The notes below the pieces were generated by a model that had not been told where the DNA came from, did no database searches, and worked only from the letters and a program-made list of their open reading frames with translations. A DNA stretch of 64,000 bases from Magnolia sinica (lineage: Eukaryota; Streptophyta; Magnoliopsida; Magnoliales; Magnoliaceae). Below are positions 1 to 64,000 of this stretch, piece after piece (the stretch's first letter is position 1; each line of letters begins with the position of its first letter). Where the stretch lies: the NCBI RefSeq assembly GCF_029962835.1, contig NC_080573.1, forward strand, positions 92,251,501 to 92,315,500, given 5' to 3'. Made by a program: the position numbers and the translations under genes.

Positions 1-1248
1 TGGACACTACTGCTTGAATCTAAGGTACCCCTCACCAATGTAAAGGCCCACTTACAGCATGGTACCATGATTCGCTAAGACTCATGAGCCGAGCATTGTG
101 GTATGGGACATCGTATTCTAATTGTCAGCCTACGCTGGGGTGACGAGCCTCCCCATAGTGACCAATGAACAACCAAGATTCGTGAGCCAGGCATGGTGGT
201 ATGAGACACCGTGTTCGAGCTGTCGGCCTACACTAAGGTGACGAGCCTCCCGTAGTGACCGCGAGTATAAATTCTTAAATTTTCCTATCGACTGTTTTCC
301 ATTAAGAGTGATGCCCGACAACTTGCCTATCATATGTGCCTAACTAGGAGTGACGAACCTAAATGGATCCTTTGGTTCGGGTCAATGATATAAAGGGAGG
401 TACCCTAACTTCCTAAATCTATTGTATGAATAAGCTTAATTAAGTACTCAGCTAACACGACCATGCATCACATTGCATCAGTTAGGATGTGCTTTAAAGG
501 CGATGAAGATTGGACGAGAGGCAATGATGTCATTACTTGCACTCTATTCATTGCATCAGTTAGGATGTGCTTTACGAAATATGTTGTCGGAGTCACTTAT
601 GAGGGAGCTTTGATGCAAGGGCATACATCATTACTTGCACTCTATTCCTGAATTAACAAGAGTAGTTAGGAAGTGATTGTTATGATTCCCTTATCATTAC
701 TGCTTGATTGACTTGATAACATGTTAAGTTTTACCTTATAGTACCACTGAGTTGGCCACTCATTCCCACCCTAGGATGGTGTTTTAAAACATTAACCAGA
801 CTCTAGTTTAGATGCATGTACTGATGAAGTCTATGCGACGGAGCAGGACTTTATGTATAAGGAGTTCTCCTACTTTCAGCCCTCGGGCGGGTCTACATAG
901 ACCTCGTGCTAATGTGCAGGAACTACAGGGATACTTTTCTTAGTTGGACACATCTAATTTTTTGCATTTTGTATATTTTGAAACAATTTATGTATATATT
1001 GAGCCCGGTTACATATTCATACTCTGGAAGTTTGTGAAACACTTACATGTTTAAATATATATGTTTCAGACTTCCGCTTGCTTAATTTAATTATATCCAG
1101 AGTATGATATATTATTTTAGTATAATTCTACTCATACTTAACTCATTAATATAGACGAAATCTGAACATCATCACCCATATTACATAAGTGATGTTCTGG
1201 ATCTCGGGAGTAGAGCTTTACTCGACCCTTGAAATTTAAGGCGTTACA
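1..1248 (+). repeat. 5' LTR (3' part only) of Tekay-like gypsy element A
   Basis: This stretch is repeated near the other end of the element: position 1 corresponds to about 12006 in the downstream copy, and the two run in parallel to the same GTTACA end with scattered substitutions and small indels. It is followed at once by a tRNA-Met-type primer site, which marks it as the 5' LTR. The first part of the LTR (about 1.9 kb by comparison with the 3' copy) lies outside the window. The short ORFs inside it are not conserved and look non-coding. Confidence 0.9.
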
Positions 1249-7237: not shown

Positions 7238-7247
7238 GCGCACTAAA

Positions 7248-8003
7248 ATGAAGGCAGAAATCAACTGTGAAACCAGATTGGTGACAACCCATGGGCCCGA
7301 GGGCACGGCCTTCACCTTCTCAGTTCAGGTCAATTGTGCTTACCGCATCCATTATTACGCCTCCCTGTTGGAAAATTGTGATAGTCTGTCACTTGGGGAC
7401 ACGCCAGTAATTCAAGATTTCATGGACATGTTCAGAATGATTCCTGGATTACCTCCTCCGCGCGAGATTGACTTTACTATTGACCTTGTTCTAGTTGCGA
7501 CACTTATTTCCTTACCGATGTATCGCATGCATCCATGTGAAATGGAGAAACTGAGGAAGCAGATAGATAATTTGTTGGACTCGGGATTCATACAGCTGAG
7601 TGTATCTCCTTGGGGATCACCTATGTTGTTTGTGAAAAAGAATGATGGATTGCTGCGATTGTGTAGAGATTATCCCCGGCTAAACCATGTCACGGTGAAG
7701 AACAAGTATCCTCTGCCCAAGATAGATGACTTATTCAATGAATTGAAGGGGGCGCAGTATTTTTCTAAGATAGACTTATAGTCCTAGTATCATTAATTAC
7801 AAGTCAAGAATGAAGATGTGTAAAAAACTGTATTCAGAACCAGTTTCGGGCACTAAGAATTCCTCGTGATGCCATTTGGACTTACAAATGCACTGGCCTT
7901 ATTCATGGATCTTATGAACCGGGTATTTTGCCCGTACCTTTACCGATTCATCATCGTATTCATAGATAACATTTTAATATACTCAAAGACTCGGAAAGAT
8001 CTT
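7248..8003 (+). pseudogene. Reverse transcriptase of element A, with lost catalytic Asp and deleted thumb
   Basis: The frame from 7248 to 7781 holds the linker and fingers: VQDF-like [72 protein letters not shown] and [10 protein letters not shown]. Three stops follow in quick succession where Gln or Gly is expected, then [17 protein letters not shown] and [16 protein letters not shown]. The catalytic box reads F-I-D-N instead of F-I-D-D, so the second metal-binding Asp is missing. Directly after it the frame jumps to the RNase H connection ([15 protein letters not shown]), so roughly 90 residues of the RT thumb/connection are deleted at about 8000. The enzyme cannot be active. Confidence 0.92.
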
Positions 8004-10058: not shown

Positions 10059-13000
10059 TATAACATCTCAAAAAAATCCAAACAAGGACCCGAGTACCAC
10101 CTCAGGCAGAACTACCCAAGGACTGCATCTTGTCGTATATTTTAGGCAAAATTTAGTTAAGTACTAAATTAAATAACCAATGAATTAAGCTCGGGTCACT
10201 ATTTTCACAAATGAGAAGGCCTAAAACCATTAATACCACTGACTCAACGTCACTTAAAGAACTAGGAGAAATCCCAAGAGCTTGTTGCTCTCGGGAGTAC
10301 ATTGAAACCCCGTATCCGACCTAGACCGCACGTTGAGGGTCCGATGACCGCGGAACTATAGGACTATGTCTGTTCTACTGGGCTTGACAACCAACACGGG
10401 AATCAAGCCTAGATAGTGTCCAAAAACGTACAACTTGGGCCAAGAGTAAAGTGTGTGAGAAACGTGATATCTTTAGAAAACAAACCAAAACTTAAGTGAA
10501 TTGGGGCATTCGCTCTCACGCAAAATTGAGAATTTTAGACCGTCAGTTTTTGACCAAACTTCGGCTATGGAACAGAAAATTTCCCTGCACATATCCGTAT
10601 AACTGTGGCCCTGATCGAGTAAGTATAACCGTTGTTCTGACACAAGTCCTCCACAGATGATCAGCCTATCCGATCACACCGAAATCATGTCCTAGCATAG
10701 ATCCATTGTCAAGGAGCATACCCTATGACGTAGGTGGGCAGTAGGCCTCCCTATCAGCCTTGTTTGTCAAAAACAGTCGCCCAAAGGGTATAAACCATGT
10801 ATATGGTGGCCCTAGGGCTATGTGCATCACTTTTGGGGTTATAAATAGCCCTTATTCCACACCATCTCTCTCATATACGAATTTCTCCAAAACCCTAAGG
10901 GAGAGAGGAGAGAAAAGAAGAGAAAAGAGGAAGGAGAGAAGAAGGATTTTAGGAGATCGTTGCAGGAATCTTCTCACACGATTCCATGCACCAAATCTCC
11001 ATCCCGTCAAGCTACTGAATCTCTTTCGGTTACAATTTTGGGTAAGAAAACTTAACCCTAATATCGTTGTAGAAATTCAAGTTGATTATTCGTCAAACTA
11101 GCTAACCTATCACGTTATTTAGGTGCCCGACGTCCCATTTTCAGAAACGTAAAGCTTGAACCGAGTTTGAATGAGTATTCTGACGAAGGGTGCATACTAT
11201 AAATGCTTAGGTTATAGTTCTCATTGCTTTCAATGTCAGCTAATGATTTATGCCTGATTTGATTGCTGTCGTGTCATCTTAGATACGCTGTTTTCGGTAT
11301 AATATACATGTATGAAATGTGTTAAGCAAAAGATGCATCCCATGTGCTTGTTGAAATATTTGAATGAACATTTAAACATGATTTGTGCTTGCCATGATTA
11401 CTAATCTAGGATTCATCATCGTCATATGCATGTTGATCTCTCTGTATAAGGAATTGTTAAAATATATGTTGTAACTAATCTAGTCTATGTATTTGGTGAA
11501 TTATAGTCTAAGTGTTTGATGAATTGTCTGAATGAGAAATTATTGATGATTTGTATTTATTAAGAGTATTAAGATAGGATTCTTAATTACCTTATTTGTA
11601 TGTATAGTCTCTTCCATGTTATCATATTTGCCTCTACGCAATTTATAGATAAAATGCAAGTGTTTGGTAACAAGATCAATGTGTTTGATGAAATGCTCGA
11701 ATGAGGAAATACTTGGATTGTTTGTTAAATGCTAAAATGATAATTACATATGTTTATTTGCTGCATGTGAGTAAGATTGGGGCTACAACGTAGCCTAAGC
11801 AATCGGTTACAGTCCCTGTTCGGGTGGCCGAACTAGTCTCACCACATTGGGTATACTCGATGAATCCAGGTCGCACGAAGATTGTCGACAGTGGCTAGGC
11901 CACGAGGAGTGCTTATGCGCTTCATGTCGATTAATTCAATGTGTGTCCATACCAATCAAGCTTGCCTAACAACTCGATTGGCCTATTATGTGTTTACCAT
12001 GTATGAACATTACTGCTTGAATCTAAGGTACCCCTCACCAATATAAAGGCCCACTTTAACCATGGTACCACGATCCGCTAAGACTCATGAGTCGAGCATG
12101 GTGGTATGGGACACCGTGTTCGAGCTGTCGGCCTATGCTAGGGTGATGAGCCTCCCTGTAGTGACTAATGAGCAACCAAGACTCGTGAGCCAGGCATGGT
12201 GGTATAGGACACTATGCTCGAGCTGTCGGCCTATGCTGAGGTGACAAGCCTCCAGTAATGACCGCGAGTATAAATTCTTAAATTTGTTTATCGACTATTT
12301 TTCATTAGGAGTGATGCCCTACAACTTACCTATTGTAATCCCTAACTAGGAGGGACGAACCTAGATGGATCCTTCAGTTCGGGTCAATGATATAAAGAGA
12401 GGTACCCTAGCTTTCCAAATTTGTTGTATGAATAAGATTAATTAAGTACTTAGCTAACATGGCCATGCATTGCATTGCATTAGTTAGGATGTGCTTTAAA
12501 GGCGATGAAGTTTGCACGAGAGTCAGTGATGTCATTTGAAAAATAGGTTGTCGGAGTTGCTTGTGAGAGAGCTTTGATGCGAGGGCATATATCATTACTT
12601 GCACTCCATTCCTGATTAACAAGAGTAGTTAGGTAGTGATTGTTATGATTGCCTTATCATTACTGCTTGATTGACTTGATAACATGTTAACTTTTGCTTT
12701 ATAATACCACTGAGTTGGCCACTCATTCTCACTCTGGGATGGTATTTTAAAACACCAACTAGACTCTGGTTTAGATGCAAGTGTTGATGAAGTCTATGTG
12801 ACGGAGCAGGACTTTATGGATGAGGAGGAGTTCTTCTACTTTCAGCTCTCGGGTGAGTCTACGTAGACCTCGTGCCGATGCACAGGGACTATAGGGATAC
12901 TTTGCTTAGTTGGACACATCTACTTTTCTGCATTTTGTATATTTTGAAAAAATTTATGTATATATTGTGCCTGATTACATATTCATACACTGGAAGTTTG

Positions 13001-13213
13001 TGAAACACTTACATGTTTAAATATATATGTTTCAGACTTCCGCTTGCTTAATTTAATTATATCCGTAGTATGATATATTGTTTTAGTATAATTCTACTCA
13101 TGATTAACTCATTAATATGGACGAAATCTGAACATCATCACCCATATCGCATAAGTGATGTTCTGGATCTCGGAGCAGAGCTTTGCTCGACCCTTGAAAT
13201 TCAGGGCGTTACA
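10059..13213 (+). repeat. 3' LTR of element A (3155 bp)
   Basis: Starts TATAACATC (a mutated TGTAACATC) after the purine tract and ends GTTACA, giving TGTAAC/GTTACA imperfect terminal inverted repeats. Its last 1.2 kb match the 5' LTR in this window. A TATA box lies at 10839-10847, followed by a GA-rich transcribed-leader-like stretch. The LTR is long for a gypsy element. The flank after 13213 is ATATG; the matching duplication would lie upstream of the window. Confidence 0.9.
10839..10847 (+). promoter_or_regulatory. TATA box in 3' LTR of element A
   Basis: TTATAAATA in a GC-richer context, with a C/T- and GA-rich leader 30-60 bases downstream. This is the expected U3/R arrangement of a retrotransposon promoter. 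Confidence 0.6.
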
Positions 13214-40797: not shown

Positions 40798-41560
40798 TTA
40801 ACCTAAGTAGACATATTTAAGATCAGCGGGCAAAGGGTTTAGGTCAAACTTCGGTGCTTTAAGGCTAGAGGGTAGAGGCACTACATCGGTTAATAGAAAT
40901 TTCTTAAATTGTGGCCTCCAGCGGTTAACTTCAAGTACCAGTGTAGCATCAAGCATGGCATCTATCTCCCTAATCATGTCATAATCCAAATCAAGGGAGT
41001 GAGCCAAGCACGTCTCTAGAGTGTCAGAGTATAAAGTCAAAAGTGCTCTATCTTCTACGAAAGAAACTATCAAGTTAATGTCGTGGATATCATCAACATC
41101 CTTTAAATGTTTACCCATGTTGAAAAATATATTAAGCTCTAATGTCATATTTTTGAAAGATAAATTCATAATTTCATTCCTACAATTAATGATTGCATTT
41201 GATGTAGCAAGGAATGGACGACTAAGAATTATGGGAATTTGAGTGCTCATATCTATGATGGGTTGAGTATTCAAGACAATAAAGTATATTGGATAGTAGA
41301 ATTTATCAACTTGGACCAGCACATCCTCAATCATCGCACTCGGTACACGGACTGAACGATTAGCAAGTTGTAATGTGGTCTGAGTGGGTTTTAATTCACC
41401 TAGACCTAGTTGTTCGTATACTGAGTAAGGCATCAGATTTACACTCGCCCCCAAGTCAAGAAGTGCATGCTTAACCTAGTGATTCCCAATTATACATGTG
41501 ATAGTTTGGCTACAAGGGTCTTTATATTTTTATGGCACATATTGCTTGAGGATGATGCTC
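40798..41560 (-). pseudogene. Aspartic protease of element Y
   Basis: The minus-strand frame 40798-41454 starts inside the active site: (L)GASVNLMPYSVYEQLGLGELKPT follows a readable Asp-Leu codon pair just upstream, giving D-L-G-A as in Athila elements. It continues LQLANRSVRVPSAMIEDVLVQV, YFIVLN.., IILSRPFLATSNAIINC. A 100-residue linker to RT follows (DALLTLYS..; EVNRWRPQFKK). Open for 218 codons, the longest coding remnant in the window. Confidence 0.88.
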
Positions 41561-48277: not shown

Positions 48278-49620
48278 AGGAATGGCACAATCGGCTTACT
48301 CACTCTTTCTGGTTCTTCCTCATATGGGGCATTGGTAGGTTCATCATTCTTAGTTTCTTCTAGGTCCTTAGGCTTTTTTTCCCTCACCGGAATAGTTTTG
48401 TCAATAATCTTCCCACTCCTAAGAGTAGTGATAGGCTTAACCTGCTCCATCTGATTTCAAGATCTTGGGTCACTTATTTCATATTGTGATTTTGGGATGG
48501 GGAGAGGTTGGGCCGGAAGGATCCCATTCACCCCAATCGAATTTTTTGTATCAAGCCTTCGTATGGCCTTTGTAAGGTCTTGAAAGGCATGCAACATACC
48601 CTGATTAAAAAGCTCTTGGCTTTGCATGTGTTTTAAGACCGGATCCTCCCGAGGTTTCCTTTAGTTTAGAAATTGGTTAAGGATTCCTTAAGGAGTAGCA
48701 GTTTGTCCATCCCTCCAATTGAAATTTGGATGGTTCCTCCAACTTGAGTTATATGTATTTGAGGTGGGTCTACTAAAAGGTCTTTGGTAGTTGTTCACAT
48801 TATTTGATTTCTCATTCAATATCTCTTGAAAAGTAGGAATTGTTGGGCAATTTTCAGTTATATGTATGTTACAAGCACAAATACCACAAACAACTTCCAC
48901 AGCCTTTTTGGGTTCTACCTTCTTAAGTTCCATGGCCTCAACTTTTCTTGTGAGTTTGTCTATTCTTATATTTATATCATCTTCCTCTTTTAAAACATAA
49001 ATTCCTTTCCTTTCCTTTGATTAAGAAGGCTTAGAAGTGGTGGTTCTTGAGGAGGTATCCCATGATTGTGCACTGTTAACGAGTTTATTAAAATAATCCC
49101 ACACATCATCGGCTTCCTTGTTCATGAATTCCCCATTACACATCATCTTCACAAATTGGCGCATAGATGAGGTCAATCCCTCATAGAAAAAGCTCGTTAC
49201 ATGCCATGTTTCATACCCATATTGTGGATATGAATTTATGAGATCTTTAAATCGCTCCCAACATTGGAAGAAGGTCCCATCTTCTTTTTGAGCAAAATTC
49301 ATGATTTCTTTCCTTAAGGTATTTGTTTTATGATATGGGAAGAACCTTTTAAGGAACTCCCTTATCATCTCAGCCCATGTGCCAATAGATCGTGGTCTTA
49401 AGGAATGTAACCACGATTTAGCCTTTTCTTTCAAAGAGAAAGGAAACAATTTTAGTCTTACCATGTCCTCAGACACGTTTGGGAAGTGTAATGTAAATAT
49501 TATCTCATCAAACTCTTTCATACGCAAGTATGGACTTTCATATTCTAGTCCATGAAACTTAGGAAGGAATTGAATCACCCCCAATTTAACATCCATGGCT
49601 CATACATTCAATGGGAATAT
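48278..49620 (-). pseudogene. gag of element Z
   Basis: Minus strand. 49021-49596, 191 codons open: GVIQFLPKFHGLEYESPYLRM, the gag core (FPFSLKEKAKSWLHSL, TWAEMIREFLKRFFPYHKT), FFQCWERFKDLINSYPQYGYE, FYEGLTSSMRQFVKMMCNGEFM. 48688-48933 carries a CCHC-like knuckle CGICACNIHITENC. It is the best-preserved gag of the window. A stop separates the two frames. Confidence 0.88.
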
Positions 49621-54650: not shown

Positions 54651-55659
54651 CACTTAGGGCGTGTTTGGATGTTGGGCCCATATGGTACAGCATTGTATAT
54701 TTTAATAAAATATACATTTCACTCATTTGAATCCAAACATCAACACGTGGTTCGTTGGCAGGCCAAGTACGTCGCCGAACCATTTTGTGGACTCCACGTG
54801 TCTCGTATGTTAGAGTACAATGCAGGTTGCATTACAATGCTTTCATTGCACTGCAACGCCACAGCAAAGAGAAGTAAAAAAAAAAGGGTTGTTTTCAACT
54901 ACATGGTTTAGGGGATCATTTCTCAGCTCTACTCTCTCTTTTATAATTTTTTCCTACTCACAACCTTGGATGTTGAAGATTGTCCTGTGGTACACTTATC
55001 CAGAGACGTCCACCATCATTTATGGTCGATAATTCACATAGCGATCGTTGAAAATCCCTGAAGCTTTTGTTTCTCTGTCCTCCTTCCGTCCACAAATTCT
55101 TGTGAGTGATTTGGCGAAGACAGGTATTTCCTTGCGTTTCCTTTACAGAAGGTGTAATATACAACGTTAATGCTCAATTCGGGGAGAGAGTATTCATGTT
55201 TGTGGGGGATAGATGTTATCTAGAGAATGTATTTCTCCTTTACTCGGTATACTCCCTAAACACAGTGATGTTTTGGGGATGCATGAAATTGTGGAGTACC
55301 CACCACATTTCCAAATCACTCTACGAAGATGGCAAGTAGGCGCAGGACACCCCAATAAGATTTTCCTGGCAGTTGAACCTTTCGGATTTACTATGTATTT
55401 GCAGTGTATCTGGGAGATGGATTCCGTATACTGCCACATGCGACAGGACCTATGTGTGTCAATGAGAGTGGGCGTACTGATCTGCCCTCCTCATCAGAAC
55501 CATTTCTAGAAAGTTTATATAAGATATTCTTGTCTTCCTTCTTCTCACATTGTTTTCTTAATTATATCGTTACGTTTTGCCCCGAGTCTAGGTGTTCTTA
55601 TATAGGCCAGGTAATAATTCATTGTCTATGTTAGCAATGTTTTCTACTGGATCGAACAT
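54650..55659. other. Flank of the CACTA element; no recognised gene
   Basis: Contains a GGCGTGTTTGGATGTTG / CCAAACATCAACACG pair at 54658-54752 that resembles a small MITE end. The rest has short ORFs on both strands without recognised domains. Confidence 0.35.
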
Positions 55660-55790
55660 CACTACCAAAAAAAAGAGTAAAGGCTACGGACTTTGAAATT
55701 TTTTTGCTACGGATTAAATCTGTAGCATTAATCCGTAGGTAAAACCTGATTGATCTGTAGCTAAAAGTTACCTCCTCACTGTAACTTTAT
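55660..55790 (+). repeat. Left terminal and subterminal repeats of the CACTA element
   Basis: Terminal inverted repeat followed by GGCTACGGAC, GCTACGGATTAAATCTGTAGC, AATCCGTAGG and ATCTGTAGC, inverted versions of one short motif. Confidence 0.85.
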
Positions 55791-55809
55791 TGGATATTGT
55801 TGGTGCTTA

Positions 55810-56100
55810 AGGAGTTCCATGGGGCCCATTGGAATATGTGTGTTTGATCTAAGCCACCCATCAATTTTGATATATAATTTCAGTGGATGAGCCCAAAAAT
55901 TATGTAAATTAAAGATCTAACTAGACCACACCATAAGAAATAATAAAAATTAAATTTCTATTGTTAATATATTGTGTGGTCTTCTTACAGCTTTGATATG
56001 ACTCATTTTTTACATCAATAGTTAAAATAATAATTTAAAACTAATGGACAGAGTGGATAAATAAAATACATCACGGTGGGCCCCACGGTCCTAAAACCAT
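55810..56100. mobile_element. MITE nested in the CACTA element
   Basis: The left arm CCATGGGGCCCATTGGAATATGTGTG and the right arm CATCACGGTGGGCCCCACGG are inverted, with the family words GAGCCCAAAAATTATG and GACCACACCATAAGAAA in between. Confidence 0.6.
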
Positions 56101-56129
56101 CAGATAAACGTCGTCCGCCACGCTCCTCC

Positions 56130-56396
56130 CAAAATGAAATGCAAAATCTATCTGTCATTTTCTCCTATGCATAGTAGGCCTCCAAAACCCTTCTCTCAAT
56201 CTCTCTTCGTCTCTCTCTCTCACTCAGCCTCTCTCTTTCCCTCGCCCTCTCTCGATCTTTTGCTCTCCCTCACCCTCTCCCTGTCTCTTAGCTGCATACC
56301 CCTCTCTTTGTTTCCCAACCCCTCTCTCTCTCTCTCTCACTAGGGTTTTCAAAACCCCCTTTCGCCACAAGAAGGAGAAGGAGAAGAAGAACGATT

Positions 56397-56445
<49 letters not shown>

Positions 56446-56450
56446 CTGAA
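56130..56450 (+). other. CT-rich leader-like region with (CT)n run
   Basis: Over 300 bases of CTCTCT-rich DNA with AGGGTTTTCAAAACCCCC and AAGAAGGAGAAGG, then a 40-base (TC) run (56401-56440). The look is that of a plant 5' untranslated region, perhaps captured with a promoter-proximal piece of a gene. No coding frame is claimed. Confidence 0.4.
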
Positions 56451-57097
56451 ATTTATTGCGTTTGAATGCACCATCCTTCAATCCCTATGAATGGAAACTC
56501 ATTTTCATTGACCAATAAAGTTGCTCTGATGGACCCCAACATGGATGGTAGATGCCCCATAAATCTACCAAATCAGATCTCCATGCTCTGACGTCTCTTC
56601 TGAAGTTTCATATGAAGTTTCTGTTTCCTGATTTTCTTTAGGTGGTTTTAGCATTAAATGATAGTTCAATTTTTTTGCTTTTTTCTATTTTCTTTTCAAA
56701 ATTTTTGTTTTGGTGATCTTTTTGTTGCCTTTTCTGAGGTGGGTTTTTGTTTTAGAGAGATTTGGGTTTTTCTTTCTTTTCTTTTTTATTTTGTAAATTC
56801 TGCCGGTATTATTATTATTTTTTTTGTTGAGGTGGGTTTTTGTTCTTGGGTAATTTTAATTTGAAGTGTTTTTTTACTTTTAAAAATTAATTTTAGCATG
56901 GATTTATCTTTGGATTCCTTTTCTAAGGTGGGTATTTGTTATTGGACTGTTTTTAGCATTAGATTTTGATGGTAGTTTTAGCTGAGAGCTTTGAATTTAC
57001 TACTGTTATCAACTGGGGCATCTTTCTTGCAGTTTTTTCTAATTTTTTATTGTTTCTGTATGAATTGGGAGCTTTGAATTTTACTACTTCTGTAATG

Positions 57098-57100
<3 letters not shown>

Positions 57101-57138
<38 letters not shown>
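57101..57138. repeat. (AG)19 microsatellite
   Basis: Perfect dinucleotide run within a T-rich, intron-like region. The overlapping Arg/Glu ORF is an artefact. Confidence 0.95.
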
Positions 57139-57144
<6 letters not shown>

Positions 57145-57728
57145 TTTTGGGTTTATGGTGGAAACTGAGATATCGGTTTGTTTTTCTATCACTGATTCTT
57201 CTGAGTTGTCATTTTTTTTTTAAGTTTTTTCCCCAGGTTTAGCTTTTAAGTTGAAAGCTTTCAAGTTACTGTTTTTCGAAGTTGAGAGATGGCCATTAAT
57301 TTTTTCGTTTTGAATTTTTTGTTGGGTATTTTTTTCCCTGAGGTTGGTTTTTAAATTTACTATTTTTCCTCATTTAACAAAGTTTTCAATCTTTTTCCAA
57401 GATAGATTTTGATGGTTGGATGAGTTGGGAAATCTGAATTTTGTTTTACAGCCATTACTGGTATTATCTTTTTCATGTAAAGTGAGATTTATTCCTTTTT
57501 TGCTGCTTTAAATGAGGTTAGGTTTGTTATTTCCATAGTTTTCTAGATTGCGATGTTAGCATCCATCGAAAGCTTCAAAATTTACTGTTTTCTCAGCATT
57601 TCGAGAGTTTATGAGGAGTTTCTTCCTCAAGTAGAAAGTGGTTAGTTCTTGTTTGTTTAGCTGAAAAGCCGAAAATTTTCCTGTTTTTCTCCTTGTTTCA
57701 TGGGTTTGCTGATTGAGAATAGTTGTAT

Positions 57729-57902
57729 CTTTTTTTTAAGACACAGGGTGTCCCCACCTCTTTTTTGAAGTGAGACTAATCCCGGCGGATACACGCAATC
57801 ACCCACAACCACGTGTATCGGGTAAAGCCAAGGAGGGGAATCGAACCCTCACCTATAGGGAACAAACCTACAGTGAAGACCATTCGCCCAAACCTCGTTG
57901 GG
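57729..57902 (-). mobile_element. SINE 3 (tRNA-derived), minus strand, inside the CACTA element
   Basis: On the minus strand: A-box-like TGGGCGAATGG, B box GGTTCGATTCC, and an A-run end. Flanks TTGAGAATAGTTGTAT (57713-57728) and TTGAGAATCGCTGTAT (57903-57918) match at 14 of 16 positions. It inserted after, or was carried with, the captured DNA. Confidence 0.87.
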
Positions 57903-58132
57903 TTGAGAATCGCTGTATTTTTTTGGGCTACTAATAGAAAAGATGACTTTTCTTTTTCTTTTTTTCATCAGTCTAAAGCATTTTTGGTATGTTTTCATCG
58001 TCGAGAATTGATAGATTTCTTTGTGGGCTTAGGGTTTCAGTGATCTGCTATTGATGTTAGGATTTGCTTCGATTCGGGACGTGGTTGAGTGGCCAGTTAT
58101 TGGTGTTAATTCCTGTTAATTTTGGAATTTTG

Positions 58133-58247
58133 ATGGCATCGACACCGCCCAATGAGGAGAGTAATAAAGGGAGCGGTCTTGGGCCAGAAGCTTGATCAGC
58201 CCATGGATGAGGAGGTTAGGAGGCTGAGGAACATGTATAGGGAAAAG
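58133..58247 (+). pseudogene. Unidentified first-exon-like fragment in the CACTA element
   Basis: ATG at 58133 opens MASTPPNEESNKGSGLGPEA, then TGA. In a shifted frame the same exon reads LDQPMDEEVRRLRNMYREK up to a good donor (AAAAG|GTGAG at 58248). The two halves look like one exon with a small frameshift near 58193. I do not recognise the parent gene. It lies downstream of the CT-rich leader-like region and a long T-rich, intron-like stretch. Confidence 0.45.
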
Positions 58248-59346
58248 GTGAGATGTTTGGTTTTGATTTTTTGAGAAGATTCTTATTCCATCTTTTGTCG
58301 AGTCCAGATGATATTAGATTCCATGTTTTGTTATGCAAAGTTTCATATGAAGTTTTTGTTTTCCACATGTACAAATAGGGAAAGAGGCTATTTTAGAGAA
58401 TGCAAATACCATTATAGCTCATCTTATTGGATTGGTTTCCTACCCACACATGATGGTAATATCTCGTGCCACACATTGATTTCCTTGTTTAGTTTATTAC
58501 TTTCCCACCTAACCAGTTATATTTCTTTACTTCATTTCTTACCACTAGTAACCGATGCCTTTTTATCCGGTTCTTCTTTCTTAATTTCATTTCTAATCAC
58601 CTTGTCATTGATCTATAAGGCTACTTTTTTTGTACCAAAAATCATCGAATTTCACAATATTCTACACCAAGTTAAACTGATTAATCATGAAATTGTTGGT
58701 CATGGTCCATCATCAGTGGGACAAAATAGGACCACTTCTCTAGATAGTTTACAGTTTTACACAGCCACTTGGGTGCAGTCCTTTTTTCTCTACTTCGATG
58801 ATTGTATTTCGTTAAGTGGAAAGAAGCCATAGATGCATTTTAGAAAAAAAAAAAGGATTAGATGTGCTCAATCAAGAGCAATCCAGCAGTTTAACATGTG
58901 GTGCCCACCTTAGAGTGTCTTGTGAGATTGGATGGGCCGGACTTTAATTATCTCACCCTTGAAATGATCTTAGCCGCCGAATGAGATAACATGGAGTAAG
59001 GCACTAGAGTATCTCCTCTTCTTGGTGGGGCCACCCTGTAAATAATTTAGATCACAAGGTGGGTGTACATGTTCATTTAACTAAGGGACGTTTTTAATAT
59101 GCCTGAAATCTTACCTCTTATGTGTATGGAGTGATAAATTAAAAGGATGTAAAAAAATGTCCACCTTATGAAAGCATTGGAGGAGGCCTATTTTTCTTTT
59201 ACTAATGCAATGAGTAATTTTTATTTATTTTTTGGTAAAACCTTTACAACTATAATTAAAAAGAGTTTGATGTGGTATTTTAGCAGCTTTCCTACCTTCT
59301 CTCTCTAACATCTTCAAAAGAGAATGTAACATGGTAAATATCTTAG

Positions 59347-59470
59347 ATCTGCACCCTAATGGGCAACAATAGACTTATAGGAGTTTCAACACGAGGTCAA
59401 GGGTTCATAGACTCATTGTGGTACGAGTGTGCAGGCTTGTGTGGAGAGTATGAGTACGCATGAAAAAATA
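59347..59470 (+). mobile_element. SINE 4, related to SINE 1, plus strand, inside the CACTA element
   Basis: Aligns with SINE 1 across TAGACTTATAGGAGTTTCAACAC, GGTCAAGGGTTC and the GTGTG-rich tail, ending in an A-rich run. Flanks AATATCTTAG (59337-59346) and ATAATCTTAG (59471-59480) are close to a duplication. The A box is partly lost. Confidence 0.65.
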
Positions 59471-59576
59471 ATAATCTTAGGCATATCAAGTATTTTAATA
59501 TATATATATATATATGGATGTGAATACTCATTTGGTCATGTTTCTATTCTTAATGACTTCTCTAAACTATGATCAG

Positions 59577-59804
59577 GTACACGAATCCTTGACTTTAGGT
59601 CCTTCTCATGCTATTGACATAACAAGGGAGGTACACATTTTCCTTGAAAGTATGATACATGAGCCTAGTTCATTTTTGTCATTTTTAGGAAATTTTGGTA
59701 GGAAAGTATGCTTTGAACTGGTTGTATATTGGTGGGTTATATAGGCCGTAAGGGAGGGAACTGATGCTGTGATAGCAATTGGAGGTGATGGTACGCTTCA
59801 TGAG
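59577..59804 (+). pseudogene. Sphingoid long-chain-base kinase-like gene fragment, two exons
   Basis: Exon 59577-59630 follows a GATCAG acceptor and reads VHESLTLGPSHAIDITRE; donor GTACAC. Exon 59745-59804 follows ATATAG and reads AVREGTDAVIAIGGDGTLHE; donor GTGTGT. Together they form the nucleotide-binding core of the diacylglycerol-kinase catalytic domain (GGDGT loop). The flanking residues match plant sphingoid long-chain-base kinase (LCBK2-like), which phosphorylates sphingoid bases. Both exons are phase 0 and 54 and 60 nt long, and all 38 codons are open. The rest of the roughly 300-residue domain is absent, so no kinase can be made. The next sequence is from a different gene. Confidence 0.87.
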
Positions 59805-59889
59805 GTGTGTTTTTTCTTCCTTCATCCATCAAGTAAAGTTCTTAGTTTTCAATCTCCATCCATAAAAGGTTATTCATGCCTTGCTGTGA

Positions 59890-60440
59890 ATTCATGGGAA
59901 GAGGAATTCAATCTTGGAGGTAGAAAGTACAAATGGCAAGGTTTTTCCTGTCTTTTTGTAGCCATTGCATAAAAATTTACTACATTATTGCATGTCGTGT
60001 TTGCTAAAGCTGCTATGATACCTCTTTAAATTTAACAGCTTCAAAATCGAAGAGGCCATACTTTGAAGTGCAGCCATTATGTTCCATCAACTTTCCTGAA
60101 AAGCATTCCCCTACCATGTGTCATTTACTGCCATGGAAATAGGTTGGTTTGATAACTGTGGTGGTTGATTTTTTCCAAGAGGTTGTCATTGTTTACTTAT
60201 CCATATTAAGTTCTGGGTATGTTTGGTATAATTTTTTAATTTTACTCTTTATGCAAGCAACCTTCTAAATTGTACTTTTGTCATTTCTGAGTTCCACTTT
60301 CATTACAAGGGAACATTTCAGTTAAATGGCAAATCTTGTTTATTTCTTTTTTCCTTGACTAATGCAGTGGCTGTAGAGCAGATGCAAATGATGCAGCTGC
60401 AATCCTACTTCCTTCTAATATTACTGTATTTACTCTTGAA
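59890..60440 (+). pseudogene. Plant alpha/beta-hydrolase gene fragment, three exon pieces
   Basis: Piece 1 (about 59893-59940): WEEEFNLGGRKYKWQ before a donor GTTTTT. Piece 2 (60039-60142): LQNRRGHTLKCSHYVPSTF...LPCVIYCHGN, donor GTTGGT. Piece 3 (from 60368, after AATGCAG): (S)GCRADANDAAAILLPSNITVFTL. The Ser codon is split AG|T across the intron. The order and words fit a widespread plant alpha/beta-hydrolase family (WEKEF..AGR, RGH.L.CSHY.P, YCHGNSGCRADANEAA, VFTLDFSGSG). HGNSG would be the oxyanion-side loop. The nucleophile elbow (GxSxG) and everything after it are missing; similarity ends at about 60440. The piece 1/2 junction is out of phase. Confidence 0.87.
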
Positions 60441-60783
60441 ATTTTCCTTTTTTTCCTTTTCTTTCTTGAAATTTTTTCTTTTCTGTTTTGCAAAAAGTAA
60501 TAAATTGATTGAAGATCGGATACTTCACCATTTTCTCCCACGCACAATAGGTATTTGTGTGGCTTTCTGGATTATTAATAAAATTCCATCATTCAAAAAA
60601 ATGACACAACTCTGTAAATATCTAGGAAGATTAGTGGCAAGATGAGGATTTTGTTCCTTGTAGGATTTTACAGTTGTGTAAAACTTCTAAGTCTCATGGT
60701 GGATGTGGCTACCATATGCTAGTTGTTGTCATTTATGCTGGTTTTGATTCTTGATTCACTTTGTAGTTATTCTGCTTTTTAAG

Positions 60784-61186
60784 AAGTTCTCCCACATGCT
60801 CCAACATTGATGACTGATGTGTTCGGCAATTATGTTATTGAAAAGGTATGATTTTTCTGGAAAAACAATCATTGGTTTCCTTCCATTTTTTTTCTTTTTT
60901 TTCTTTTCCCCATAAAGATACCTTCCATTCTTTTTCCCCTGTTCATCTACCCTCCTTTATCTTTTTTAAAAGGCTATGAGCTGGTGATCTGGTAGTCTCT
61001 ATATTCATTCTCATGTTGGTCGTATGAACTCGTTCGCCTATGATATAAAAATGCTCGGTTATTGTTTGTCTTTGCAGTTTTTTTTAGCATGGAAGCCTTG
61101 AACAAAGAAAAGAACTAGCAAATCAGCTTGCTGGCTACTTTCAACCTTTGAGCCTTCAGATGTATAGGTGCTGGGTAATTCAAAAG
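60784..61186 (+). pseudogene. Pumilio (PUF) RNA-binding protein gene fragment, two exons
   Basis: Exon 60784-60845: EVLPHAPTLMTDVFGNYVIEK, donor GTATGA. Exon 61078-61186 after [40 protein letters not shown], donor GTATTA. This is one and a half PUF repeats; NYVIEK and CWVIQK are the RNA-contacting helix positions (family form NYVIQK, GCRVIQK). PUF proteins bind 3' UTRs and repress or localise mRNAs. A GAG-to-TAG stop stands before HGSL, and the exon start has an extra T. Eight repeats are usual, so this fragment cannot make a working domain. Confidence 0.9.
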
Positions 61187-63120
61187 GTATTATTATGGGT
61201 CATTTGTTGGGTGGGGCTTGGCATGTACTGTTTTCTTCTTTATATAGACAAATAGTTCTTGGCAGCTGGCTTTTGGACTGTCCTATATACTACTCAACAT
61301 TGATCAATGCACACATTGTATACTAGACAACTCAATATTTATGAGGATACGAATGACTAATTTGGATTCAATTTGAATTTTCAAGGCTAATCCAGGCTTA
61401 CACATGTTGCCCTTTTTAATGGACGGTATGTGCTTGATTTTATTTTTTTTATTATTATAGTTGTTGAGGGATGCAAATATGCTCTGCTTGAATTCATGAT
61501 GGGAGCTAATTACTTGGGTTTTACCAGTCAAAGGGTAGGTGTTAATGTAGATGGACAACATTCTTATGATCTTAGACTAGTTTGAGATCTGTGACTAAGA
61601 CTCACTAACACAACATCGGCACCATATACAGACCAATGTTTCAAAAATTGAACCATAGGCCAACCCATTTCATAAGTAGGAAGAAAATCAGGTGCAATAG
61701 AAATGCTTGTTTTGGTTGATGGCAGGAAAATGTGAACCTAATGCATGAGAATTAGTTTGAGTTAAGAAACACTTTATAAGATGTCTCATCTAGAGTGCAT
61801 CCCGTTTTTAGTTGTGTTTGGACTAAGCGTTGCGGCCCATGTGTTGGAAATGTACGTGCTTGTATTTTTAAATCTTGTTTAATTAATATTATTTCAAATC
61901 TGTAAATATACACGAGTGCAAATAATTCTATATATGCTTCATGCATTTATCAAATCATTGTAGTTGTCCGATCAGTGTGATTTGGGCACTATGGTGTATC
62001 CATGATTGGGTCCACATAATAATCTGGGTCACCATGTGCAACCTGTATTGCACTTTATATTGCTGCCTTGCTGGTTATATAATAGGTAATTTGCAATATG
62101 GATGTATACTTCTAACATGTCTGGATCTTTTTCTTGGAAGTGGATCTAAATGGTGCATAGGTAGCTGTCCTAAATATTTTCTTTTGTTTGTAGTCTAAAT
62201 TTGGTTTTTTGTCTAATTAGCTAGCAATCAAAGGCCTCAAATGTATTTTTTTTAAATAACTTGTTAGGCATCAAATGGTTTTTACTAAATCTATTTCATC
62301 ACTATAGCCTTGTCCTAGCTATTAGGGGCAACCCAGGCAGGATTCCATGAAAATCTATTTGTTGATCAAATTCCATTGCTGAATACATTAGGTAGTTTGT
62401 TGTTCTCTTAACATTAGCCCACTTCTGATTATTTTTTTTTCTATCTGAGAATGATTTAGTATTGCACATCAGCTCAACAAATGTTTGTTGAATGTAAGGT
62501 GCTCATTTCCATGGGTCACCAGGTTGATGTGTAAAATTCCGGAACAAACCAAATATGGGCTTTGCCCCAAAAGTTGTAGCCTCTTGGATGATCCTAAGCC
62601 CTTGAATTGTGGTAGAACTATGATCACAAGCATTTTTGGGTCTTATGCTAATTGAGTGGTTGGGATTGTGGAAAATTTACAATTTTTGGCCATGTCTCAC
62701 ATATAGCGTGGTAAAAGCCAAGGTAAAAAAAAAAAAGTGAAAATTAAGAAAACTCATAGTCAGAAGCAAGCTAGGATTTGGTTTCTGTTTTCCAAATAAA
62801 CAATATACTACTAGCTTCCATCATCTACTATTGGCTTCCATCATGGACACATGTTTCCCAAAGAGCCAAATCGTCCATTTATAAATGAGTATTGAATGTA
62901 ACTATTTTATCTGTTCTTAATATATGCTTATGTGATTAGATTGCTTTATTGCACATGTATGTGCACTTAGTAAAGCTCTGTTCTTGATGTAAAGTTTTTT
63001 GTTCAAATTAGAAGGAGGCTTCTAAGAATATCATTATCTTTCCTTTTTCTTTTGCTCTATTCTTGATGTGTATCATTGTTTGCTCAAATTGGAAAGGAGG
63101 TTTCTAAGTTCTTTCATTTC
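61187..63120. other. CACTA interior without a clear gene
   Basis: T-rich, intron-like or intergenic. A short piece after TTATTATAG (61459-61540) has an acceptor-like start and an open frame, but no match is recognised. AT-rich ORFs elsewhere look incidental. Confidence 0.35.
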
Positions 63121-63132
63121 TTTCTTTTCTTC

Positions 63133-63220
63133 TTTTGACAGGCTTGTTGGTTGATGACAATTCACAAGGAGTAGAATGGCTATATGGAGCTCTTTCTGCT
63201 CATATGTGGTCAGGGATGAT
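63133..63220 (+). other. Possible further captured exon
   Basis: After a good acceptor (TTTTGACAG) one frame reads LLVDDNSQGVEWLYGALSAHM, open for about 28 codons. I do not recognise it. It could be a fourth captured exon or chance. Confidence 0.25.
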
Positions 63221-63289
63221 TTGCAAGGAGTAGAGATAAACTTTTCTTTGTTTCTATCTTACCTTTTCTTTTTATTTCTTTTTCTTTGG

Positions 63290-63312
63290 TTTTTTTTTTT
63301 TTTTTTTTTTTT
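63290..63312. repeat. Poly-T run
   Basis: 23 T followed by seven G. The length is likely uncertain in the assembly. Confidence 0.9.
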
Positions 63313-63659
63313 GGGGGGGTTTCTCTAGTGTTCCAACAGAATTGTATAATCATATGTGAGAGACATGATAGCCCTTGAAAGAGCTTATAAGACAAAATAC
63401 TCTCTTGTTATGCATGTAATTAATTAAGTGTGATGTATTTCTTCTATTATTCTTTATTCGTATTAGTTTAGATTGGTAATGGATTTGTAAGCCATAAAGT
63501 CTTTATCTTTATCAGCATATTAGATGGGTCGATCTACTAGGGCATGTACTACAATGAGTAATTGTAATTGAATGAATGAATGATTGTAATCGAATGAATG
63601 AACGATTATGCAGGTGGTAATTGAATGAATGAATGATTAAAAAAAAATTAATGTATGAA

Positions 63660-63966
63660 ATAGCTACGGATATTGACCATAGCCAGTAATCTGACAGCTG
63701 TAGCCATTATTAAATTTGACATATTGTTATGGACTTTTAGCTACAAATAATATTCGTAGTTGTTTATGCTTATCGCTACAAATATAATTGCTACGATTAT
63801 ATTTGTAGCTCTTGTAACATAAAGTTACGGATTAAATCTGTAGCTATAGGTTCCAGACCTATTGTTATGGCACCTACCACTACGATCGTGCTACGGACTA
63901 GAACCGTAGCCATAGGTCTATGGCTACGAATTTTATCCGTAGCCTTTACCCATTTTTCTGGTAGTG
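63660..63966 (+). repeat. Right subterminal and terminal repeats of the CACTA element
   Basis: About ten direct and inverted copies of GCTACGGAT / TGTAGC-type words lead to the terminal inverted repeat. Just before, at 63555-63640, a TAATTGAATGAATGAATGATT unit is repeated three times. Confidence 0.85.
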
Positions 63967-64000
63967 CATCCTTGTTCTCATTTGAAATGTTCCATATATT

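What the first reader, a model, noticed from the sequence alone, without database searches (positions are those of the whole stretch)
55660..63966. A CACTA transposon carrying exons of three unrelated plant genes
Termini (CACTA..TAGTG, 28 of 31 positions matching), a perfect CAT duplication and subterminal repeats define the element. Inside, in the same orientation within 1.7 kb, are exon/intron pieces of a long-chain-base kinase, an alpha/beta hydrolase and a Pumilio protein. Capture of several host genes by CACTA elements is known from other plants; this particular combination may be undescribed. It could give a chimeric transcript or small RNAs that act on the parent genes.
Basis: partly seen in the sequence, partly recalled or inferred. 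Interest (0 to 1): 0.93.

Follow-up and report, generated by a model that had tools for sequence, protein, structure and literature searches.

The report
Jumping DNA carrying plant-gene fragments
This is a non-autonomous plant transposon that has stitched together pieces of at least four unrelated host genes and moved them as one block; the kind of thing is known, but its relatives in the same genome carry the same pieces in other combinations, so the steps of its assembly can be read.

Summary
55660-63966 has CACTA..TAGTG ends (28 of 31 positions), CAT/CAT duplication and clustered subterminal motifs. A second copy of the whole composite on C13 is 91% identical from terminus to terminus with its own CCA/CCA, so the cargo moved as one unit. 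The 31-nt terminus (up to 3 mismatches) occurs 2952 times in the genome, 0 in the reversed control.

The cargo is larger than reported: besides kinase, alpha/beta hydrolase and Pumilio exons, the left 2 kb comes from the 5' part of a HAK/KUP potassium-transporter gene. Candidate parents for all four lie on other contigs. Relatives carry the pieces in other combinations; one junction is a 14-bp microhomology between two relative types. Exons are only slightly closer to the parents than introns, and this copy's Pumilio exons have two stops: mainly passenger DNA. A 148-aa spliced chimera is open here but has two stops in the sister.

It is a Pack-CACTA element, close to soybean Tgm-Express1: a new member of a known kind with readable assembly history. 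Expression was not testable.

The parts
55657..55659 (.). target-site duplication CAT (left)
55660..55690 (+). 5' terminal inverted repeat, 31 nt
   Evidence: family count
55660..55789 (+). 5' subterminal repeat region (4 motif matches)
55782..56460 (+). 5' segment shared with 12 other scored loci at 78-87%, a different set from module A; includes a CT-rich 5'UTR-like stretch
56399..58465 (+). module A: up to 58329 from a HAK/KUP-type potassium transporter gene (5'UTR-like part with (CT)n, intron, first coding exon); shared with 20 scored loci at 90-94% besides the sister
   Evidence: candidate parent locus C12:17515583-17518000, Pfam K_trans 4.5e-24 for the parent's next exon
58133..58247 (+). 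potassium-transporter first coding exon; a 5-bp deletion, shared with the sister, breaks the frame from the ATG used by other copies
58452..58465 (+). junction of module A and module B: 14-bp microhomology GATGGTAATATCTC
58452..60538 (+). module B: kinase plus hydrolase block, shared with three loci on C17, C5 and C3 at 94-96% (60385-60538: 97% C5, 88% C3, not seen C17; window has extra 59270-59530)
59528..59867 (+). sphingoid/long-chain-base kinase (LCKB2-like, name recalled) fragment; exons 59577-59630 and 59745-59804
   Evidence: 93.5% to C6:94330700-94332000; Pfam DAGK_cat
59890..60439 (+). alpha/beta hydrolase fragment; exons about 59890-59940, 60039-60142, 60368-60439
   Evidence: 88% including introns to gene at C10:2648136-2651721
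60538..60549 (+). scar where relatives hold a spacer and a piece of an LRR receptor-kinase-like gene
60549..62490 (+). module C with Pumilio fragment; shared with 12 loci (60549 to 61560, 61617, 62232 or 62490) and 6 more (60549-61376)
60771..61196 (+). Pumilio (PUM) gene fragment, homology starts inside an exon; exons 60771-60845 and 61079-61187, each with a premature stop in this copy
   Evidence: 82% including intron to PUM gene at C9:1868700-1870900
62051..63966 (+). 3' module shared with another set of family members; 3 of them (L046, L047, L048) match to the 3' terminus
63637..63966 (+). 3' subterminal repeat region (13 motif matches)
63936..63966 (-). 3' terminal inverted repeat, 31 nt
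63967..63969 (.). target-site duplication CAT (right)
58152..60500 (+). hypothetical spliced chimeric ORF of 148 aa (transporter, kinase, kinase, hydrolase, hydrolase exons); two stops in the sister copy
   Evidence: no RNA evidence

Best explanation
A non-autonomous Pack-CACTA transposon. Shown: its termini, 3-bp duplication and subterminal repeats; no transposase domain in the 10 of 71 ORFs scanned; a second complete copy elsewhere; fragments, with introns, related to four host genes; relatives with other combinations of the same pieces. Inferred: a TNP2-type CACTA transposase, whose domain is abundant in this genome, acts in trans on the terminal and subterminal repeats and moves the whole block. 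The cargo was assembled stepwise: fragments of host genes lying between neighbouring elements were enclosed, elements then fused or recombined with one another at short homologies (14 bp at 58452-58465; perhaps within the CT repeat near 56400), and internal deletions trimmed the result (loss of the LRR piece at 60538/60549). The cargo now mostly decays as passenger DNA, with possible but unproven chimeric transcripts or small RNAs.
For: TIR/TSD; 2952 ends genome-wide, 0 in control; sister on C13 91.4% over 55660-59436 and 91.1% over 59431-63967, with a 3.1-kb insertion between, TSD CCA/CCA read by eye from its flanks; candidate parents on C6, C9, C10, C12 while the element is on C1; pieces in other combinations; 14-bp microhomology junction; Transposase_21 domains abundant: 1669 candidates, 150 scored, all 150 over cut-off; 0 of 14 control genomes; 10 of the 71 ORFs of 45 aa or more scanned without transposase domain; exon/intron identity to parents 95.6/94.2, 96.5/93.1, 92.4/91.1%; stops in the Pumilio exons in 8 of the 16 transposon copies examined.
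Against: No autonomous element with these exact ends was identified; only the sister was fetched terminus to terminus, and 5' ends of the other relatives were not read. Parent loci are candidates: only the best 40 DNA candidates are scored per search, so a closer donor could be missed, and for the C6 kinase locus only two exons were seen. Direction at junctions (fusion versus later loss in relatives) is inferred. The right-hand flank compared with the sister is only about 33 bp, as the window ends there.
Confidence: 0.93

Rival explanations
1. The block became a functional chimeric gene: transcription from the captured potassium-transporter 5' region, splicing of transporter, kinase and hydrolase exons into a 148-aa protein.
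For: The splice sites used are GT donors and AG acceptors, phases match and the window reading is open for 148 aa from ATG 58152; soybean Tgm-Express1 fragments are spliced as exons (PMC1947982, abstract seen).
Against: The ATG at 58133 is out of frame through a 5-bp deletion shared with the sister; the sister has two stops in the same frame; exon identity only slightly above intron identity; phase agreement by chance is about 1 in 9 for the two inter-gene joins (own estimate).
Confidence: 0.07
2. The cargo works as a source of small RNAs that dampen the parent genes.
For: Cargo keeps 91-97% identity to the candidate parents in aligned columns; maize captured fragments act as siRNA reservoirs (review PMC13317346, passage seen).
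Against: The identified fragments are all in the same orientation; of 144 inverted pairs found, the 25 longest, the only ones listed, are all CT/GA repeat pairs, so no cargo hairpin was seen among them. No small-RNA data.
Confidence: 0.15
3. The two termini belong to different, overlapping elements and the cargo is ordinary genomic DNA between them.
For: By eye, none of the 12 scored loci that share the 5' segment lies near a listed locus of the 3' module.
Against: The same composite with both termini and its own TSD is at C13. The different sets fit an ancient fusion, not a present overlap.
Confidence: 0.02

Closest known systems
Tgm-Express1, CACTA element of soybean (Zabala and Vodkin 2007, PMC1947982; abstract and outline seen)
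   Same: CACTA element composed of several unrelated host gene fragments with introns (five there, at least four here)
   Different: There chimeric splicing is shown by RT-PCR; here no RNA data. Here a full sister and many recombined relatives are seen in one genome.
Pack-CACTA / Pack-TYPE elements of Arabidopsis, rice and maize (Catoni 2019, not held, known through PMC13317346, passages, and PMC8903248, passages and sections 9-10)
   Same: TIR-bounded, no transposase, captured coding DNA from several loci; fusion of neighbouring elements proposed, with AB and BB fusion groups shown for a rice Pack-Mariner and similar cases reported for CACTA
   Different: Here an 8.3-kb element whose gene pieces recur in several combinations, with a 14-bp microhomology at one junction; whether published cases show the same was not checked in full
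CACTA-like elements of Chenopodium (PMC8978399, passages seen)
   Same: CACTA with captured gene fragments, there in the 5' region
   Different: In the passages seen, the elements have transposase domains and each holds fragments of one gene, such as 80 bp of AP2
Pack-MULEs (recalled)
   Same: exon-intron fragments of several genes inside one non-autonomous element
   Different: different superfamily: TIRs and TSD length differ

Membership tests
CACTA (En/Spm) superfamily | termini begin CACTA and end TAGTG, inverted | tested here: met
   28 of 31 positions
CACTA (En/Spm) superfamily | 3-bp target-site duplication | tested here: met
   CAT/CAT in the window; CCA/CCA at the sister
CACTA (En/Spm) superfamily | clustered subterminal repeats | tested here: met
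   17 of 21 motif matches in the outer 460 bp
CACTA (En/Spm) superfamily | TNP2-type transposase (Transposase_21) in the element | tested here: not met
   10 of 71 ORFs scanned, none with it; defining only for autonomous members
Pack-CACTA | host gene fragments inside compatible TIRs, no transposase | tested here: met
   (transposase: 10 of 71 ORFs)
Pack-CACTA | moves as a unit: more than one copy with same cargo and separate TSD | tested here: met
   C13 sister
Pack-CACTA | mobilised in trans by a CACTA transposase | not testable with these tools
   Transposase_21 abundant in genome; no autonomous copy with the same ends identified
Pack-CACTA | cargo acquired by fusion of neighbouring elements | tested here: inconclusive
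   mosaic relatives and a microhomology junction fit it; intermediate arrays were not fetched

The most novel reading that the evidence does not exclude
This CACTA family evolves as a mosaic: a shared pool of host-gene pieces (transporter, kinase, hydrolase, LRR kinase, O-GlcNAc-transferase-like, Pumilio) is reassorted between elements by recombination at short homologies, so that exchange among elements, more than fresh capture from genes, makes new exon combinations, some of them open as spliced chimeras.
Probability: 0.35. Interest if true: 0.65.

Novelty: new member of a known kind. Interest (0 to 1): 0.42.

Why it matters
How non-autonomous plant transposons gather exons of several genes is still largely a model. 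Here one genome holds a two-copy composite, candidate parent genes, and some 40 relatives with partial, overlapping cargo (12 + 6 + 3 loci, 20 loci), so order of capture, breakpoints and homologies can be read. That makes the fusion model testable. The paper searches (listings only) did not surface this combination. Only named one of the genes: none of its 10 listed papers (of 62) contains 'Pumilio'. So absence from print is not shown.

Tried and rejected
Considered and rejected: two overlapping elements (sister has both ends); segmental duplication as the source of the sister (homology stops at 55660 and at 63967; about 160 bp of left and 33 bp of right flank compared); a functional chimeric gene as the default (stops in the sister); a transposase remnant (10 of 71 ORFs scanned); an Rfam RNA in the element (none at gathering score). 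The first TIR pattern was off by one base in its spacer (42 + 52 matches) and was replaced. A protein search with the 38-aa kinase peptide found only one exon of the window itself, so parents were sought by DNA. An attempt to link a Transposase_21 locus to listed TIR places by eye gave nothing firm; one search lists only about a hundred of 2952 places.

Led nowhere: the open frame at 61442-61515 and the exon-like stretch near 63150 (no match over a Pfam cut-off); the origin of 58452-59269 (in one search, besides the relatives, a 73% match on C16).
Full report
What was checked. The window lies at G000:C1:92251501-92315500 of a 1.84-Gb genome in 127 contigs. The termini at 55660 and 63966 match at 28 of 31 positions and are flanked by CAT/CAT. 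A 31-nt pattern of the terminus with up to 3 mismatches matches 1481 times forward and 1471 times reverse, against 0 and 0 for the reversed control, so the family probably has more than a thousand copies (inference from the ends). Of 21 matches to eight GCTACG-like hexamers, chosen after seeing the ends, 17 lie in the outer 460 bp and 4 in the other 7847 bp; the rest of the window has 54 in 55656 bp.

One transposing unit. On C13 a second copy aligns from terminus to terminus: 55660-59436 at 91.4% and 59431-63967 at 91.1%, with a 3.1-kb insertion of other repeat DNA between. Homology does not extend into the roughly 160 bp of left flank or beyond one base of the roughly 33 bp of right flank that were compared. 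The sister's flanks read CCA before the first base and CCA after the last (read by eye). This speaks against the ends belonging to two different present-day elements.

Cargo. The kinase exons 59577-59630 and 59745-59804 give a peptide with the diacylglycerol-kinase catalytic domain (1.7e-7); the name LCKB2-like is recalled. A candidate parent on C6 matches 59528-59867 at 93.5% (two exons seen). The hydrolase block 59890-60439 matches a gene on C10 at 88% through two introns; that gene continues with further exons in L038, and its spliced peptide hits Hydrolase_4 at 7.3e-8 and solved esterases weakly (best 9.2e-5). The Pumilio block 60771-61196 matches a PUM gene on C9 at 82% through its intron, beginning inside an exon; the window peptide hits solved Pumilio structures. 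New here: the left part up to 58329 has its candidate parent on C12 (84% over 56638-57732, 89% over 57903-58329). The next exon of that parent, not in the window, carries the K+ transporter domain at 4.5e-24. So the element holds what looks like the 5'UTR, an intron and the first coding exon of a HAK/KUP transporter gene, and the cargo is related to at least four genes on four contigs other than C1.

Relatives. With 59500-61600 as query, 51 match rows were returned (40 of 234 candidates scored). Besides the window and the sister, 12 loci (L011-L022) share 60549 onwards; upstream all 12 carry a piece of an LRR receptor-kinase-like gene, and further upstream L011 has a TPR piece like O-GlcNAc transferase; that upstream part of L011 aligns at 90-98% with the other 11. 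Six loci (L026-L031) hold the hydrolase piece, a 45-60-bp remnant of the LRR piece, the Pumilio piece and parts of the 3' module; the longer stretches L046, L047 and L048 of three of them reach 63966 and L043 of a fourth 63961. Three loci (L023-L025) hold the kinase and hydrolase block, two of them with an LRR piece. L074 on C6 holds hydrolase exons, the LRR piece and one Pumilio exon. The transporter module recurs at 20 further loci at 90-94% (40 of 2091 candidates scored). Only the best candidates are scored, so these numbers are lower bounds.

Junctions. At 58452-58465 the left-hand type and the right-hand type share exactly GATGGTAATATCTC and differ on both sides; the window follows the one to the left and the other to the right (two loci of each type). 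Two further loci match 58328-58692 across this junction (C13 and C11), so the junction is not private to the window copy and its sister. The change from the 5' segment to the transporter module falls near or in the CT repeat at 56399-56441. At 60538/60549 the window lacks the spacer and LRR piece held by relatives, most simply a deletion. These fit recombination or fusion between elements followed by trimming. Which state is ancestral at each junction is inferred.

Function. Identity to the parents in aligned columns is 95.6% in exons and 94.2% in introns for the kinase, 96.5 and 93.1 for the hydrolase (33 gap columns in its exons left out), 92.4 and 91.1 for Pumilio (43 gap columns in its intron left out): slightly higher in exons each time, but no clear excess; no test of significance was made. 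In the Pumilio exons the window has two stops, the sister none; 8 of 16 transposon copies examined have a stop and one more (L029) a 4-base insertion (13 of the 18 relatives held, plus window, sister and L074; L026 and L074 have a 3-base gap, L074 covers one exon only). An open spliced reading of 148 aa from ATG 58152 through five exons exists in the window; in the sister the same reading has two stops. I therefore hold the cargo to be mainly passenger DNA, with transcripts and small RNAs possible and untested.

Mechanism. Shown: the anatomy, the second copy of the composite, the mosaic relatives. Inferred: movement in trans by a TNP2-type transposase; the Transposase_21 domain is abundant (1669 candidates, 150 scored, all over the cut-off, 0 of 14 control genomes), none was seen in 10 of the 71 ORFs of the element. 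The fusion model is that of Catoni and colleagues, not held here, read through PMC13317346 (passages) and PMC8903248 (passages; sections 9 and 10). [quoted passage not shown] Soybean Tgm-Express1 (PMC1947982, abstract and outline) carries five gene fragments. Hence a new member of a known kind.

Noticed in passing
window 49214-49321 (+): Rfam snoR71 match above the gathering score (45.2 bits against 40) lying antisense inside a 192-aa gag-like ORF at 49021-49599 (-) ('gag-like' is my reading); probably a family hit on retrotransposon DNA rather than a snoRNA gene.
   Followed up: no
window 1-1248 and 11882-13213; L039 1115-4210: The 3.1-kb insertion in the C13 sister, with TG..CA ends by eye, matches parts of these two window stretches at 70-83%, so the window holds copies of the same repeat.
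   Followed up: no
window 59270-59530: 261-bp stretch present in the window, absent at the same point in L023-L025; its right part recurs at 85-93% elsewhere: a small inserted repeat or a deletion in the relatives, lying right at the start of the kinase fragment.
   Followed up: partly
L076 (C14:47870900-47871900) and seven further places: A 152-154-bp block (59528/59530 to 59681) with the first kinase exon recurs at 97-98% without the rest of the module being listed there, as if this exon travels in yet another repeat.
   Followed up: partly
L011 (C4:81368255-81372353) and 11 alike loci: Another composite with 12 loci: LRR receptor-kinase-like piece and Pumilio piece, with an O-GlcNAc-transferase-like TPR piece upstream in L011.
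   Followed up: partly
window 7239-7781, 40798-41475: Long ORFs that look to me like retrotransposon polyprotein pieces, not part of the element.
   Followed up: no
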